From NCBI GenBank assembly GCA_944320595.1, contig CALUIB010000005.1:79061-143060 (forward strand): a stretch of DNA of 64,000 bases, read 5' to 3'. The translations under genes were made by a program, and so were the position numbers. How positions within the stretch are numbered: the first letter of the stretch is position 1; each line of letters starts with the position of its first letter. Shown here in pieces: positions 5,040 to 54,680 of this stretch. The notes beneath the pieces were generated by a model, which worked only from the letters and a program-made list of their open reading frames with translations, was not told where the DNA came from and did not search any database. This stretch comes from an uncultured Muribaculaceae bacterium. GTDB lineage: Bacteria > Bacteroidota > Bacteroidia > Bacteroidales > Muribaculaceae.

Positions 5040-6017
5040 TTATTGGTTATAAATGCCCGATTTGTATTTTGCAAGATTGTCGCGGCACGAGAACCATTCT
5101 ATGGTCTCGCGCAATCCGTCTTCGAGCGAATACTGCGGCCTCCACTGGGTGAGGCTTGTGATTTTGCTGTTGTCGCCAAGCAGGCGGAACACTTCGCTCT
5201 TGCGAGGGCGCATACGCTGCTCGTCTTGCACCCATTTCACATCGGCCTCCATAAGCCGCGCAATCATTTGCAGCGTGTCGGCCATGCTTATTTCGGTGCC
5301 TGTGCAGATGTTTATTTCCTCTCCTTCAATGGCGTCGGTGGAGGCCAGCGCAAGGAACCCACGGCAAGTGTCCTTCACATAGTTGAAGTCACGCGTAGGC
5401 GTGAGGTCTCCTACCTTTATCTCCCTTGCCCCGTCGGCAATTTGCGTGATTATGGTGGGGATTATGGCGCGTGCGCTTTGCCGCGGCCCGTAGGTGTTGA
5501 ACGGGCGGGCAATAACCACTGGCAAGCCAAACGCGTTGTAGAAACTTTTGGCAATGGCATCGGCACCGATCTTCGTAGCCGAGTATGGCGACTGCGGCTG
5601 CCGCGGGTGACGCTCGTCGATAGGCACATATTGCGCTGTGCCATATACTTCGCTCGTCGATGTCACCACTATGCGCCTCACACCGCAGTCTCGCGCAGCC
5701 TGGCACATATTCAGTGTGCCGCGTATGTTGGTGTCAACGTAGCTGTCGGGCGCGACGTAACTGTAAGGTATGGCAATCAGCGCGGCCAAGTGCAGCACAG
5801 TGTCGCAACCACGAGTAATGTGGCGGCAAAAGTCACCATCGCGCACATCGCCGCACACCACCTCAAGCCTAGGGTTGCGCACGTCGTCGAGCCACCCCCA
5901 GTAGTTGAACGAATTATATTGGCTCAATGCCCTCACTTCATACCCCTCGGCAAGCAACAAATCCACCAAGTGCGAACCGATAAACCCGTCGGCTCCTGTC
6001 ACAAGAACTTTCTCCAT
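5040..6017 (-). CDS. legB: NAD-dependent UDP-N-acetylglucosamine 4,6-dehydratase (LegB-type SDR)
   Basis: This extended short-chain dehydrogenase of 325 residues has the dinucleotide motif GADGFIG at residues 8-14, a catalytic region TSTSEVYG near 119-126 and the YxxxK pair at Y145/K149. The signature RALSQYNSFNYWGWLDD near residue 29 and the substrate-loop phrase RPFNTYGPRQSARA are typical of the LegB family. That family makes the 4-keto-6-deoxy sugar that starts legionaminic acid synthesis. ATG 6017 is chosen because it begins the MEKVLVTGADG Rossmann strand, and an upstream in-frame ATG (6056) lies inside the promoter. It is first gene of the legB - ATP-grasp - neuB operon. Promoters sit in two copies of a repeat just upstream. 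Confidence 0.9.
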   Translation of the reverse strand: MEKVLVTGADGFIGSHLVDLLLAEGYEVRALSQYNSFNYWGWLDDVRNPRLEVVCGDVRDGDFCRHITRGCDTVLHLAALIAIPYSYVAPDSYVDTNIRGTLNMCQAARDCGVRRIVVTSTSEVYGTAQYVPIDERHPRQPQSPYSATKIGADAIAKSFYNAFGLPVVIARPFNTYGPRQSARAIIPTIITQIADGAREIKVGDLTPTRDFNYVKDTCRGFLALASTDAIEGEEINICTGTEISMADTLQMIARLMEADVKWVQDEQRMRPRKSEVFRLLGDNSKITSLTQWRPQYSLEDGLRETIEWFSCRDNLAKYKSGIYNQ

Positions 6018-6042: not shown

Positions 6043-6074
6043 CAAAGATAGTGCAAGTCGAGCGCAATGGCAAA
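6043..6074 (-). promoter_or_regulatory. Promoter in repeat copy 1, proximal to legB
   Basis: On the minus strand TTTG (6074-6071) is followed after exactly 20 nt by TATCTTTG (6050-6043). This is the Bacteroidota housekeeping consensus TTTG-N19/21-TAnnTTTG. The expected transcription start is near 6036, leaving a leader of about 20 nt before legB. Confidence 0.8.
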
Positions 6075-6122
6075 TCATGCTCGCATGATTTTTGCCCATT
6101 GCCGAGACGCAGCCCGTCTTAT
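6043..6122 (-). repeat. Hairpin-promoter repeat, copy 1
   Basis: This is one of three related elements of about 75-80 bp. Read on the minus strand it has a palindromic part (arms AATCATG / CATGATT around a 4-nt loop) and then the conserved tail CCATTGCGCTCGACTTGCAC followed by TATCTTTG. Its minus-strand 3' end lies 25 nt upstream of the legB start. The tail and flank match copy 2 almost exactly, while the hairpin stem differs in sequence but keeps its pairing. Confidence 0.85.
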
Positions 6123-6123
6123 C

Positions 6124-6155
6124 CAAAGATAGTGCAAGTCGAGCGCAATGGCAAA
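6124..6155 (-). promoter_or_regulatory. Promoter in repeat copy 2, distal to legB
   Basis: On the minus strand TTTG (6155-6152) is followed after 20 nt by TATCTTTG (6131-6124), a full consensus match. Transcripts would pass through copy 1 before legB, so the operon appears to have two stacked promoters. Confidence 0.7.
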
Positions 6156-6193
6156 AAAACAGCTCGCTGATTTTTTGTCATTGCCGAGGCGTA
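6124..6193 (-). repeat. Hairpin-promoter repeat, copy 2
   Basis: This tandem neighbour of copy 1 has the same tail and a different palindromic core (ACAGC tc GCTGA with A-rich and T-rich flanks, closed by CAATG/CATTG). It has the same orientation as copy 1. A 31-nt stretch at its promoter end is shared with copy 1 almost without mismatch. Confidence 0.85.
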
Positions 6194-6233: not shown

Positions 6234-6268
6234 GAAAAAAAGCGCACCCTCATGGAGGATGCGCTTTT
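6234..6268 (-). terminator. Terminator of the ribosomal protein block
   Basis: On the minus strand the inverted repeat GCGCATCC ... GGGTGCGC with a short loop is followed by seven T residues. It begins about 27 nt after the rplQ stop. An A-run on the other side means it could also work on the plus strand, but no plus-strand gene lies nearby. Confidence 0.85.
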
Positions 6269-6294
6269 CATTCTATCGGTGAATACCCTTTGGA

Positions 6295-8438: not shown

Positions 8439-8579
8439 TGTTGTTTTTTTGACTTTTAAATAAATTAAACTGACACTTTCAAGTGCAGCCGCGATTACAG
8501 AGAGGTTAGCTAAGAATGTAATCTATTTCACTATGAAAGCCTCGAAATTGTTGTAATTGTAAAAAAGCGGGAATTGAGA
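8439..8579 (-). promoter_or_regulatory. Long intercistronic leader before rpsD (candidate S4 control region)
   Basis: There are 141 nt between rpsK and rpsD, where most gaps in the block are under 60 nt. On the minus strand it can pair GATTAC (8523-8518) with GTAATC (8498-8493) and form a CACTT/AAGTG hairpin closer to the start codon. The regulatory role is an inference from position. Confidence 0.35.
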
Positions 8580-27453: not shown

Positions 27454-27509
27454 CAGCACTTTTATGCCGACCGCCTGCCCCACCGTGGGCTTGCACACAT
27501 AAAAAGTTG

Positions 27510-27592
27510 CTCGGATGGTGGAATGGTAGACACGAAGGACTTAAAATCCTTTGGCCATTGCGGCTGTGCGGGTTCAAGTCCCGCTCCGAGTA
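27510..27592 (+). tRNA. tRNA-Leu (anticodon TAA)
   Basis: The 83-nt cloverleaf has acceptor arms GCTCGGA / TCCGAGT with a G-T closing pair. The anticodon stem AAGGA/TCCTT encloses CTTAAAA, with anticodon TAA. A long variable arm typical of leucine tRNA is present, and the T arm is GCGGG TTCAAGT CCCGC. CCA is not encoded. The 3' end doubles as the attachment site of the integrated element; the tRNA itself is intact. Confidence 0.95.
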
Positions 27593-27610
27593 CAAAACAA
27601 ATCGCTAACT
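27579..27610 (+). repeat. attL direct repeat
   Basis: The 32 bp are identical to 33968-33999. It starts in the tRNA-Leu T-arm (TCCCGCTCCGAG) and ends in AAATCGCTAACT. Homology to the right copy continues imperfectly for about 30 bp more and includes the second arm of a terminator-like hairpin (AAATCGC / GCGATTT). Confidence 0.9.
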
Positions 27611-27648
27611 ATCAGTATATTAGATGGTTGGCGATTTTGCTTTATCCG

Positions 27649-27675
27649 TTTTGTCCTCCTTTTGTCCTCCAAATC
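27649..27675 (+). repeat. Left copy of 27-bp element-end repeat (candidate integrase arm site)
   Basis: Two adjacent TTTTGTCCTCC units (27649-27659 and 27660-27670) are followed by AAATC. The same 27 bp occur at 33831-33857 near the other end. Position inside each att end is that expected of arm-type binding sites of a tyrosine integrase. Confidence 0.6.
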
Positions 27676-33967: not shown

Positions 33968-33999
33968 TCCCGCTCCGAGTACAAAACAAATCGCTAACT
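33968..33999 (+). repeat. attR direct repeat
   Basis: The 32 bp are identical to the tRNA-Leu 3' end at 27579-27610. The following bases again form a hairpin (AAATCGCTAACT ... AGTTAGCGATTT) with a T-rich tail, so both att sites carry a terminator-like stem. Confidence 0.9.
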
Positions 34000-34070
34000 G
34001 TCAACATATTAGATAGTTAGCGATTTTCTTTTACCCTTAATGTCACTTGGATGCCGCAGCATCTTGGGCA

Positions 34071-49330: not shown

Positions 49331-51772
49331 ATGAAATATGTGATAATAGGAGGCGTGGCAGGCGGTGCCACTGCCGCAGCAAGGCTGAGAAGGATTGACG
49401 AAGCTGCCGAGATAATATTGCTTGAAAAAGGCAGTTACATATCGTATGCCAATTGTGGGCTGCCCTATTACATAGGTGGCGTGATAGCGCAGCGTGAACG
49501 GCTGCTGGTACAAACGCCGCAGTCGTTTGGCCAGCGGTTTCGCGTGGACGTGCGAGTCCTCAACGAGGCGGTGGCCATCGACACTGCCAAAAAGACTGTG
49601 GCGATTAAGAATGCTGCCACAGGGAAAACTTATTCCGAAAGCTACGACAAGCTGCTGCTCTCGCCCGGCTCCACGCCGGTGAGGCCGCCGCTCGCGGGTA
49701 TCGACACTGAGGGCATCTTCACCCTGCGCACCGTGGACGACACCGACAGCATAAAGGATTACATGGAGCGCAAGCAGCCGCGCCGCGCCGTGGTGGTGGG
49801 CGCAGGCTTCATTGGGCTTGAAATGGCCGAGAACCTGCACCACGCAGGGCTTGACGTGGCAATAGTGGAAATGTCCAACCAGGTGATGGCTCCCATCGAC
49901 TACTCGATGGCGGCGATGCTGCACGGCCACCTGTCGCAAAAGGGGGTATCGCTCTACCTTGAAGAAAGCGTGGAGTCGTTTGCCCGAAATGCCAACGGCG
50001 GCATCGACGTGTGCCTGAAAAGCGGCGGCCGCATACCAGCCGACATGGTGCTGCTGTCGATAGGTGTGCGCCCGGCCACCGCGCTGGCACGGCAGGCAGG
50101 ATTAGAAATAGGCGAGGCAGGCGGCATAAAGGTGAACGAATATCTTGAAACGTCGGCACCAGGCGTGTATGCCGTGGGCGATGCCATCGAGTACCCCCAC
50201 CCCATCACCGGCAAGCCGTGGCTAAACTACCTTGCAGGCCCGGCCAACAGGCAAGGCCGCATAGTGGCCGACAACATGGCGCGCGGCAACCGTGTGAAGT
50301 ATGAAGGCTCGATAGGCACATCGGTGGCAAAGGTGTTCGATCTCACTGTGGCCTCGACCGGGTTGCCGGCAAAGAGGCTAAAGCAGTGGGGCATAGACTA
50401 CGCAAGCTCCATCACTCACTCGTCGTCGCATGCAGGCTATTACCCCGATGCCATGCCGCTGACCATAAAGCTGACTTTCGACAAGGCCACTGGCAGGCTG
50501 TATGGGGCGCAATGCGTGGGGCACGAAGGTGTTGACAAGCGCATCGACCAAATAGCCGCCATCATCAAGCACGGCGGCACTGTTTACGACCTCATCGAAA
50601 CCGAGCATTGCTATGCACCGCCATTTTCGTCGGCAAAAGACCCCGTAGCCATTGCCGGATATGTGGCAAGCAACATAATAAACGGCGATATGCCTGCCAT
50701 AACGTGGCGGCAGCTTGCCGAAGAGAAAGACCGGGTGATGCTTATCGACACACGTACCCCCGAAGAGTTTGCCTTCGGCGCAATACCGGGAGCGGTGAAC
50801 ATCCCCGTTGACCAACTGCGCGACAATCTCGACAAAGTGCCACGCGACAAGCCAGTGGTGGTGTATTGCGCCGTAGGGCTGCGTGGGTACATAGCCTTGC
50901 GCATACTCGCAGGGCGCGGCTACGACAAAGTGCGCAACCTCATTGGCGGCTACAAGACCTATTCAGCCGCCACCGCCCCACTGCCCAAGCCTGCGGCAGG
51001 CAAGCCACGGGCAACACAAGCAGGCAGCAGCCACGAGCCGAAAGTGTCGCTCCGGGTGAACGCCTGCGGAATGCAATGCCCAGGCCCCATCATGGAGGTG
51101 AAGAAAGCCATCGACAGCCTTGGCGACGGGGAATCGGTGGAGATAACAGCCACCGATGCCGGATTTGCCCGTGATGCCTCGTCGTGGTGCGCCACCACCG
51201 GCAACCGCCTTGTAAGCCAAACCGAGGATAAAGGCCGATACACCGTGGTAATAGAGAAGTGCCGCGCAAAGCAACCGTCGTCGGCAGGAGAGCAGCCGAC
51301 AGGCAAAGGGAAAACATTAATTCTGTTCAGCGACGACCTCGACAAGGCACTGGCAACATTCGTCCTGGCCAATGGCGCGGCAGCCACCGGGCAGAAGGTG
51401 TCGATATTCTTCACATTCTGGGGACTAAATGTGCTGAAGAAGGTGCACAAGCCACGAGTGCAGAAAGACCTGTTCGGGAAAATGTTTGGCATGATGCTCC
51501 CGTCAAGCTCGCTGAAACTGAAACTCTCGAAGATGAACATGATGGGCATAGGCCGCCGCATGATGCGGTCGCTTATGGCAAAGAAGGGTGTTGATTCGCT
51601 CGAAACCCTGCGCGACCAAGCTCTGCGGCAAGGTGTGGAGTTCATCGCCTGCCAAATGTCGATGGATGTGATGGGCATAAGCCGCGAGGAACTAATCGAT
51701 GAAGTGACTGTGGGCGGAGTGGCAACCTACATGGAACGCGCCGAGCAAGCCAATGTGAACCTGTTTATCTAA
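49331..51772 (+). CDS. CoA-disulfide reductase-like fusion: FAD reductase - rhodanese - TusA - DsrE
   Basis: The 813-residue cytoplasmic protein has four modules. Residues 1-440 are a pyridine nucleotide-disulfide oxidoreductase (IGGVAGGATAAARLRR dinucleotide fold) with the single active-site cysteine of CoA-disulfide reductases in YISYANCGLPYYIGG (C43). Residues ~465-545 are rhodanese (LIDTRTPEEFAFGAIPGAVN, active loop VYCAVGLRG). Residues ~570-645 are TusA-like (VNACGMQCPGPIMEVKKAID). Residues ~658-813 are DsrE-like. It probably moves sulfane sulfur or protects against persulfides. No neighbouring sulfur gene is seen. The 166-nt gap upstream shows no clear promoter. Confidence 0.93.
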   Translation: MKYVIIGGVAGGATAAARLRRIDEAAEIILLEKGSYISYANCGLPYYIGGVIAQRERLLVQTPQSFGQRFRVDVRVLNEAVAIDTAKKTVAIKNAATGKTYSESYDKLLLSPGSTPVRPPLAGIDTEGIFTLRTVDDTDSIKDYMERKQPRRAVVVGAGFIGLEMAENLHHAGLDVAIVEMSNQVMAPIDYSMAAMLHGHLSQKGVSLYLEESVESFARNANGGIDVCLKSGGRIPADMVLLSIGVRPATALARQAGLEIGEAGGIKVNEYLETSAPGVYAVGDAIEYPHPITGKPWLNYLAGPANRQGRIVADNMARGNRVKYEGSIGTSVAKVFDLTVASTGLPAKRLKQWGIDYASSITHSSSHAGYYPDAMPLTIKLTFDKATGRLYGAQCVGHEGVDKRIDQIAAIIKHGGTVYDLIETEHCYAPPFSSAKDPVAIAGYVASNIINGDMPAITWRQLAEEKDRVMLIDTRTPEEFAFGAIPGAVNIPVDQLRDNLDKVPRDKPVVVYCAVGLRGYIALRILAGRGYDKVRNLIGGYKTYSAATAPLPKPAAGKPRATQAGSSHEPKVSLRVNACGMQCPGPIMEVKKAIDSLGDGESVEITATDAGFARDASSWCATTGNRLVSQTEDKGRYTVVIEKCRAKQPSSAGEQPTGKGKTLILFSDDLDKALATFVLANGAAATGQKVSIFFTFWGLNVLKKVHKPRVQKDLFGKMFGMMLPSSSLKLKLSKMNMMGIGRRMMRSLMAKKGVDSLETLRDQALRQGVEFIACQMSMDVMGISREELIDEVTVGGVATYMERAEQANVNLFI

Positions 51773-51905
51773 TTAGGAATTAGGAATGAGGAATTAGGAA
51801 TTAGGAATTGGAAATTAGGAATGAGAAATTAAAATGTGTTTATAGTCAATTTCCAATTCCTAACTCTTAATTTCTAACTCCTAACTCCTAATTCCTAATT
51901 TTTTA
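51771..51905. repeat. AATTAGGA tandem/inverted repeat cluster
   Basis: About eight degenerate GGAATTA units (51774-51835) face about seven inverted TAATTCC-type units (51848-51902) across a short AT-rich loop. The whole can form a long imperfect hairpin. It lies between the reductase fusion stop and the TonB receptor promoter and may act as a transcription stop. Arrays like this occur dispersed in other bacteria. Confidence 0.75.
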
Positions 51906-53904: not shown

Positions 53905-53979
53905 GCCCAGGCGGCTCGGCAAATGCGCAAAAATCAGCTTGCTGTTTTTTGCATTTGCGCTCGCCTTGCACTAACTTTG
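53905..53979 (+). repeat. Hairpin-promoter repeat, copy 3
   Basis: This is the same family as 6043-6193 but in plus orientation. A stem made of CAAATGCGCAAAAATCAGC and GCTGTTTTTTGCATTTG is followed by the tail GCTCGCCTTGCAC and TAACTTTG. Aligned to copy 2 (reverse complemented) about three quarters of positions agree. Confidence 0.82.
53948..53979 (+). promoter_or_regulatory. Promoter in repeat copy 3, ahead of the ECF sigma operon
   Basis: TTTG (53948-53951), exactly 20 nt, then TAACTTTG (53972-53979). The sigma factor ATG is 84 nt downstream of the -7 box. The match is as good as the ribosomal block promoter. Confidence 0.72.
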
Positions 53980-54062: not shown

Positions 54063-54680
54063 ATGAAAGAGGCCATAAAGTGGTGCGACATAGTGGAGGG
54101 TCGTGAGGCGGCATACAATGATTTGTATGACTGCTACAGCGACTTGCTTTATGGCTACGGCATGAAAATCATTGCCGACGAGGCGGCGGTGATGGACGCG
54201 ATACAGACGCTGTTCATGAATATTTTCGAGAAACGCAAGTCGCTATCTGCACCCAATTCCATAGCCGCTTACTTGTGCCGGGCATTGAAGAACCTGCTCA
54301 TCAATGAGATGCAAAGTGCCACCACCCGCAACACTTGCAAATGGGACGACGAGGAGGCGGCCGCCGACTACGACTTCGACCTACAGCCCGATGCCGAAAG
54401 CGCAATAATTGCCAACGAGAGCAACAACGAGAGGTTCAGAGTATTCAAGGAGGAACTTGGAAAACTAAGCCGCCAACAGCGCGAGATATTGTACTTGCGA
54501 TACTATAAGGGCCTTGCCATAGAGGAAGTGGCCGAAATACTGGCGGTGAGCAAGCGAACGGTGTATAACACGTCGAACAATGCCCTTACCCGGCTGCGCG
54601 AGAACAAGGTGCTTGCACGGTACTTCGGCGAGGCGGCAATAGCGTTTCTGTTGAGTATAAAGGAGTTTTACATTATATAA
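54063..54680 (+). CDS. ECF-type RNA polymerase sigma-70 factor
   Basis: This 205-residue sigma factor has region 2 (AYNDLYDCYSDLLYGYGMKI, DAIQTLFMNIFEKRKSL) and region 4 (KLSRQQREILYLRYYKGLAI, then EEVAEILAVSKRTVYNTSNN). It belongs to the large FecI-like group of Bacteroidales paired with FecR anti-sigma factors. The anti-sigma gene follows 19 nt downstream. The operon promoter lies in repeat copy 3, so basal transcription appears to come from the housekeeping sigma factor. Confidence 0.95.
   Translation: MKEAIKWCDIVEGREAAYNDLYDCYSDLLYGYGMKIIADEAAVMDAIQTLFMNIFEKRKSLSAPNSIAAYLCRALKNLLINEMQSATTRNTCKWDDEEAAADYDFDLQPDAESAIIANESNNERFRVFKEELGKLSRQQREILYLRYYKGLAIEEVAEILAVSKRTVYNTSNNALTRLRENKVLARYFGEAAIAFLLSIKEFYII

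What the first reader, a model, noticed from the sequence alone, without database searches (positions are those of the whole stretch)
6043..6193. A dispersed hairpin repeat that carries a perfect promoter
Three elements of about 75 bp (6043-6122, 6124-6193, 53905-53979) share a tail CTTGCACTAnCTTTG preceded by a palindromic stem. In all three the stem sequence differs but pairing is kept, and in all three TTTG stands exactly 20 nt before TAnnTTTG, the Bacteroidota housekeeping promoter. All three point at the next operon at close range. REP-like repeats are usually seen at gene ends; here the repeat looks like a mobile or amplified promoter cassette whose hairpin overlaps the -33 box.
Basis: partly seen in the sequence, partly recalled or inferred. 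Interest (0 to 1): 0.75.

Follow-up and report, generated by a model that had tools for sequence, protein, structure and literature searches.

The report
Promoter-docking hairpin repeat of Bacteroidales
This bacterium and its closest relatives carry dozens of copies of an 80-letter hairpin-shaped DNA repeat lying just where the predicted on-switches of genes are, and the repeat likely spreads by slipping into such switches and rebuilding them, so that the gene would stay on.

Summary
A covariance model finds 104 units in 70 places of this 2.73 Mb genome. The tail faces gene starts: ORFs of 150 codons or more begin within 60 nt on the tail side in 43 of 70 places, on the head side in 3 of 70. 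TTTG stands 18-22 nt before the box in 92 of 104 units. The hairpin includes the -7 box: its free base n1 covaries with the head (165 of 183 units, shuffled mean 99). In arrays, the gene-proximal unit is followed by G in 64 of 70, internal units in 3 of 34. At four orthologous genes the genus's genomes carry 0-3 units. The family is patchy across Bacteroidales, had no exact match in the viral contigs and does not track REP transposases. Best reading: a non-autonomous hairpin element that docks at -7 boxes and rebuilds the promoter. Mobility and transcription starts are inferred. A sister class with other arms, in genome G061, is not promoter-oriented.

The parts
6044..6120 (-). gene-proximal (last) unit in front of legB
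   Evidence: covariance model, C5:85104-85180, 78.4 bits
6125..6200 (-). upstream (internal) tandem unit; one of 3 of 34 internal units whose box keeps the G
   Evidence: covariance model, C5:85185-85260, 56.9 bits
53898..53978 (+). single unit in front of an ECF-type sigma factor gene
   Evidence: covariance model, C5:132958-133038, 62.6 bits
6043..6050 (-). -7 box TATCTTTG of the last unit
   Evidence: consensus TAnnTTTG in PMC7366714 (passages)
6071..6074 (-). -33 box TTTG in the 3' arm of the hairpin, 20 nt from the -7 box
6124..6131 (-). -7-like box TATCTTTG of the internal unit
6152..6155 (-). TTTG of the internal unit, 20 nt from its box
53972..53979 (+). -7 box TAACTTTG of the third unit
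53948..53951 (+). -33 box TTTG of the third unit, 20 nt from the -7 box
5040..6017 (-). downstream gene, legB (NAD-dependent 4,6-dehydratase)
   Evidence: TIGR04180, 490 bits, cut-off 475
54063..54680 (+). downstream gene, sigma-70 family (ECF) sigma factor
   Evidence: TIGR02937, 80.7 bits, cut-off 42.9

Best explanation
It is an 80-bp palindromic repeat, 104 units in 70 places of this genome, whose 3' half in most units matches the -33 and -7 boxes of the housekeeping promoter, and it likely spread by inserting at the -7 box of existing promoters and supplying a replacement promoter. Shown: hairpin pairing that includes the -7 box; tail-first orientation towards gene starts; tandem arrays in which usually only the last unit has an intact TAnnTTTG; presence and absence at the same gene between genomes of one genus. 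Inferred: in a single-stranded or extruded form the head would pair with the tail box, and an unidentified enzyme, or replication or repair acting on the hairpin, would join a unit just after TAnnTTT(G). The old box would be left upstream and the new box joined to the host's G and leader, so the gene would stay expressed. A second round at the same place would give a tandem array whose upstream boxes would then be silent and decay.
For: 104 units in 70 arrays. Tail-side ORFs of 150 codons or more within 60 nt 43 of 70, head side 3 of 70. Base after TAnnTTT is G in 64 of 70 last and 3 of 34 internal units, p 4e-17; in other lineages internal boxes are broken in several different ways, intact 11 of 60. 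n1 of the box pairs with the head in 165 of 183 units, x with x' in 164 of 183. Units per gene vary from 0 to 3 within the genus at typA, ychF, lpxB and legB, and are absent outside it in the loci examined. At typA GCACCC follows the box in 8 of 8 genus genomes with units and in 6 of the 13 printed without. At legB, G003 has a plain CTAACTTTGCAGAAAACAA; G008 has ACAAACTTTGCA, then one unit, then TATCTTTGCAGGAAACAA. First units have TAnnTTT exactly 11 nt before the head in 17 of 70, against 0-3 at any other offset from 7 to 39. G061 has a class with the same core and other arms.
Against: No enzyme is known: Y1 transposases are absent here and do not track the copies; other recombinases were not searched for. 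No exact match in viral contigs, none in plasmids and two weak matches in phage records, where a freely mobile element might be expected (most of those records are not from carriers, so this is weak). No pair of genomes with both flanks alignable and one lacking the unit was found. Outer pairing and the -33 box do not differ between last and internal units. Of the 17 left-flank boxes at offset 11, 11 look by eye like stubs of older units. No transcription data.
Confidence: 0.5

Rival explanations
1. A host promoter module, not a mobile element: a cruciform-forming upstream region kept for regulation (for example by supercoiling), homogenised between loci by gene conversion and expanded by slippage.
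For: Copies found almost only in chromosomes; core swapped while head and tail stay, between the own genome and G006 at one locus; units of one array alike; the same genes keep units across the genus (typA 8 of 9, ychF 7 of 8).
Against: Internal units with broken boxes keep the hairpin as well as last units do; the genus's genomes without units have plain boxes; the G061 class has no promoter role.
Confidence: 0.22
2. A conventional MITE of an unseen insertion sequence or tyrosine-integrase element whose target happens to be TAnnTTTGC (the CTnDOT attB core GTANNTTTGC is recalled, not found in a call).
For: TTTGCA on both sides of the unit at legB of G008 and at L139.
Against: No such element was found beside the copies examined; integrases were not searched for; a hairpin arm that covaries with the box is not expected of a double-stranded integrase site.
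Confidence: 0.13
3. An intrinsic terminator or insulator placed before promoters.
For: Many cores read A-tract, short GC stem, T-tract.
Against: Upstream neighbour co-directional in 28 and divergent in 29 of 57 places; cores without a long T run are common, e.g. CATGCAAGCATG; rplQ, upstream of the window's array, already has a terminator-like hairpin near 6235-6269 (read).
Confidence: 0.07
4. A REP element moved by a RAYT (Y1) transposase.
For: Single hairpin with a paired tag at its foot, dispersed, about 100 copies.
Against: No PF01797 match in this genome; none in G001, G004, G005, G006, G012, G032, G034, G035, G036 or G057, which hold many copies, though some copy-rich genomes (G002, G003, G007, G008) do have one; consensus carries no GTAG tag; not at gene ends.
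Confidence: 0.04

Closest known systems
Correia elements and other promoter-bearing MITEs (PMC10969869, passages)
   Same: Short dispersed palindromic repeats without genes that carry promoter sequences, often immediately upstream of genes.
   Different: Here the promoter box is itself one arm of the hairpin and covaries with the other arm; the orientation is nearly fixed; tandem arrays have one live box; no related transposase was seen.
BrickBuilt MITE of Porphyromonas gingivalis (PMC4596501, abstract and passages)
   Same: Bacteroidales, strictly intergenic, tandem repeats, promoter activity.
   Different: BrickBuilt is a 23-nt minisatellite between terminal repeats such as GAGACCTTTGCA, 19 copies in ATCC 33277, bidirectional promoters; here an 80-bp palindromic unit with AAGATAG/CTATCTT arms and one direction.
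REP elements, GTAG and CGTC types (PMC3733652, passages)
   Same: Chromosomal palindromes in high copy; CGTC REPs lack a transposase and occur in Bacteroidetes.
   Different: Other tags, 20-40 bp, reported downstream of genes; here about 80 bp and upstream of genes.
Housekeeping (sigma-ABfr) promoter of Bacteroides (PMC7366714, passages)
   Same: TAnnTTTG at -7 and TTTG near -33.
   Different: That paper's passages describe single promoters without this repeat.
Integron attC sites (recalled)
   Same: Two paired boxes around an internal loop and a bulge, then a variable central stem; arrays.
   Different: Outer box AAGATAG/CTATCTT, not RYYYAAC/GTTRRRY; no gene cassette; integrase not searched.

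Membership tests
REP/RAYT (GTAG type) | GTAG tag at one end | tested here: not met
   consensus ends AAGATAGG and CTATCTTT
REP/RAYT (GTAG type) | RAYT (Y1) transposase in carrier genomes | tested here: not met
   0 of 1 own; 36 of 61 relatives, without tracking the copies
REP/RAYT (GTAG type) | mostly at gene ends | tested here: not met
   tail-side gene starts
CGTC REP | CGTC tag at one end | tested here: not met
   CGTC occurs only inside some units (GCGTCTCGG), not at an end
MITE | 50-1000 bp, dispersed, no coding capacity | tested here: met
   units of about 80 bp
MITE | terminal inverted repeats | tested here: met
   outer 7-bp arms, 87.6% of cells paired
MITE | target-site duplication | tested here: inconclusive
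   TTTGCA on both sides in a few cases, but it is also common promoter context
MITE | related autonomous transposon | tested here: inconclusive
   only Y1 was searched
BrickBuilt | 23-nt tandem repeat with GAGACCTTTGCA-like ends | tested here: not met
   by eye, consensus against the ends given
Housekeeping promoter | TAnnTTTG and TTTG near -33 | tested here: met
   60 of 70 last units have TAnnTTTG; TTTG at 18-22 nt in 92 of 104 units
Housekeeping promoter | transcription start about 7 nt downstream | not testable with these tools
   no transcript data for this genome
Integron attC | RYYYAAC/GTTRRRY boxes (recalled) | tested here: not met
   arms AAGATAG/CTATCTT

The most novel reading that the evidence does not exclude
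A new class of mobile DNA that uses the bacterial promoter as its attachment site: a single-stranded hairpin whose outer 7-bp arm is an interchangeable address. CTAnnTTT arms send it to -7 boxes in a fixed orientation, CAAACGTT arms send the sister class in G061 elsewhere, and every landing rebuilds the promoter it breaks, so the element rides in front of housekeeping genes across Bacteroidales.
Probability: 0.22. Interest if true: 0.9.

Novelty: new variant of a known kind. Interest (0 to 1): 0.67.

Why it matters
If true, dozens of predicted promoters per genome in copy-rich Bacteroidales, some of them in front of housekeeping genes, are built from one repeat family. Promoter turnover there would be partly driven by a repeat, and promoter annotation and expression engineering in these bacteria would have to allow for it. 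It is also a testable case of an element that is near neutral because it breaks a regulatory box and rebuilds it, and it poses a clear question: what recognises a hairpin whose arm is a -7 box.

Tried and rejected
RAYT/REP origin: disfavoured as a present driver. RNA family: no Rfam family on the units in the window or, up to E 1, in seven carrier loci. Terminator/insulator as main role: no bias of upstream neighbours. Phage or plasmid carriage: no exact match in viral contigs, none in plasmids, two weak matches in unannotated phage records. Selection on pairing for promoter use: pairing and the -33 box do not differ between last and internal units. Clean empty/filled pairs: sought in G006 against G004 and own, at xerD in relatives of G061 and at legB; only legB of G008 against G003 is suggestive. 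Autonomous relative: the variant tail in G061 was followed and proved a second repeat class; only ORF positions beside it were looked at, its neighbours were not identified. Literature: ten searches, of which 19 and 59 returned nothing, listed no description of this sequence or of a promoter-nested repeat of this form in Bacteroidales; only titles and abstract starts were seen for most, and subscription papers and preprints are not in that library.

Full report
OBSERVATION. The tail CTTGCACTAnCTTTG is exact in all three; TTTG stands 20 nt before TAnnTTTG in each; each folds better than its shuffles, z -2.1 to -2.4. In the whole genome (2.73 Mb, 40 contigs) the tail has 81 matches with up to one mismatch and the reversed control 0. 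A covariance model built from 37 units finds 104 full-length units at E 0.01, with 150 of 2185 candidates scored, in 70 places: 46 single, 15 double, 8 triple, 1 quadruple.

ANATOMY. A unit reads, in the common form, head AAGATAGGC(T/G)GCGxCTCGGCA, then a variable AT-rich palindrome, then tail TGCGCTCGx'CTTGCACTAnnTTT. Two helices covary. The outer 7 bp pair the head with the -7 box itself: n1, a base free in TAnnTTTG, is Watson-Crick paired with the head in 165 of 183 distinct units (AT 121, TA 22, GC 21; shuffled mean 99), and x pairs x' in 164 of 183 (GC 91, CG 45, TA 28; shuffled mean 70). Both x and the head partner of n1 were free positions in the patterns used to select units. On the 37-unit alignment 10 of 17 pairs show changes on both sides, and 91.3% of cells pair against 80.4% shuffled and at most 55.6% in slid versions. 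Related sequences inflate such shuffles. In the own genome the outer G-C pair is flipped in some units (AATACAC/GTATATT). Not every outer position is good: the fifth head base pairs in only 130 of 183. The centre varies between recurring cores such as CAGCAAGCTG, CATGCAAGCATG and CAAATAAATTTG; at one locus (own C6:95401, a RuvX-like gene named from memory) head and tail are kept between the own genome and G006 while the core is swapped.

PROMOTER. The tail is the published -7 consensus of the housekeeping sigma factor, with TTTG near -33 (passages of PMC7366714). TTTG lies 18-22 nt before the box in 92 of 104 units, mostly at 19 or 20, and 60 of 70 last units have TAnnTTTG. ORFs of at least 150 codons start within 60 nt of the tail in 43 of 70 places but on the head side in 3 of 70; with a 60-codon limit the numbers are 47 and 12. 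A crude gene call on the 60 tail-pattern places puts a same-strand gene downstream in 49, an opposite one in 4 and leaves 7 unassigned; upstream neighbours are 28 co-directional, 29 divergent, 3 unassigned. Of the downstream proteins I named eight: ychF, lpxB, pfkA, rpoN, miaB, the window's legB and sigma factor (all over their cut-off), and typA (a partial protein, just under it).

THE LAST-UNIT RULE. The base after TAnnTTT is G in 64 of 70 last units but in 3 of 34 internal ones (p 4e-17). In other lineages internal boxes are broken in other ways (TA deletion CACACTTTG, TATCGTTG, TACTTTG, TACTCTG): intact in 11 of 60 internal against 98 of 128 last units (p 3e-14). The last-unit figure there is biased by the search seed and the loose pattern adds noise. 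The window's own internal unit is one of the three exceptions. The -33 box and the outer pairing do not differ between internal and last units, which speaks against promoter use as the reason for the pairing.

COMPARISON OF SPECIES. I ran the model on 72 of the 99 loci fetched for four genes (legB 14 of 14, typA 21 of 29, ychF 20 of 29, lpxB 17 of 27). Counting the own genome, typA has 1-3 units in 8 of 9 genomes of the genus and none in 12 others; ychF in 7 of 8 and 0 of 12; lpxB in 2 of 8 and 0 of 9; legB, the window's gene, in 6 of 9 and 0 of 5 (a decayed seventh copy, in G001, is visible by eye). Some of these are weak (20-34 bits). At typA the leader GCACCC follows the box in all 8 with units and in 6 of the 13 printed without, so the tail stands in place of the native -7 box; at ychF the leader is less constant (GCACTC in 4 of 7 with units, 2 of 13 without). 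At legB, G003 has a plain promoter CTAACTTTGCAGAAAACAA; G008 has ACAAACTTTGCA, one unit, then TATCTTTGCAGGAAACAA: what an insertion at the box would leave. The flanks further upstream do not align well, so this is suggestive only. In own first units TAnnTTT stands exactly 11 nt before the head in 17 of 70, 0-3 at any other offset from 7 to 39; by eye 11 of these are stubs of older units and 6 look like host boxes.

DISTRIBUTION. Abundant in all nine genomes of the genus (35-76), patchy elsewhere: 26 of 61 genomes at E 0.001, own included (strict filters, at most 77 candidates scored per genome). The window's genome is probably Muribaculaceae, an inference from those titles. No exact match in 2.9 million viral contigs, none in plasmids, two weak ones in unannotated phage records. 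Y1 transposases do not track the copies. No Rfam family fits.

A SECOND CLASS. In G061 (the genome of L097) 17 listed tails read CTTGCACAA(A/G/T)CGTT instead. Of the 16 fetched, 9 have a head that complements CAAACGT at 6 or 7 of 7 positions (ACGTTTG, ACCTTTG, ATGTTTG), with the same inner core (counted by eye). They are not promoter-oriented: downstream gene on the same strand in 8, opposite in 7, unassigned in 1. So the outer arm can change while the core stays.

READING. Commitment: a non-autonomous hairpin element that docks at the -7 box and rebuilds the promoter (0.5). Shown are the structure, the orientation, the last-unit rule and the presence/absence; inferred are mobility, enzyme and expression. 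The strongest facts against it are the near absence from phages and plasmids, the lack of any known mover, and the lack of a pair with both flanks alignable. A host promoter module spread by gene conversion remains possible (0.22).

NOVELTY. It fails the tested tags of GTAG and CGTC REPs and the repeat of BrickBuilt, meets the general form of a MITE, and differs from Correia elements (passages of PMC10969869) in that the promoter box is a covarying hairpin arm. The ten paper searches listed no description.

Noticed in passing
window 27579-27655 and 33968-34044: 77-nt direct repeat, 86% identical, one copy overlapping the 3' end of a tRNA (27509-27592): looks like the ends of an integrated element of about 6.4 kb.
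   Followed up: no
window 8486-8523 (-): S4-Bacteroidia ribosomal protein leader.
   Followed up: no
window 51771-51831: Simple tandem repeats of AATTAGGAATGAGG type between genes.
   Followed up: no
G061, e.g. L299 3923, L306, L309: Second class of the hairpin with ACGTTTG/CAAACGT-like arms, 17 listed copies, no orientation bias.
   Followed up: partly
L142 1460, L315: Short units of G061 lie inside a repeat with GGGCGTTTT upstream and AAAACGCCCC downstream.
   Followed up: no
own contigs C8 end, C11 start, C12 start, C18 start, C24 end: Assembly breaks fall inside or beside units, so arrays may be under-counted.
   Followed up: no
L013 1-1919 against G006:C3: 99.6% identical over 1.9 kb with the same two units, while other own-to-G006/G004 stretches are about 75-96% identical: recent transfer or an assembly matter.
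   Followed up: no
L197, first typA unit of G006: An almost perfect palindrome in which the head is the reverse complement of the tail core; the model also hits the opposite strand there.
   Followed up: no
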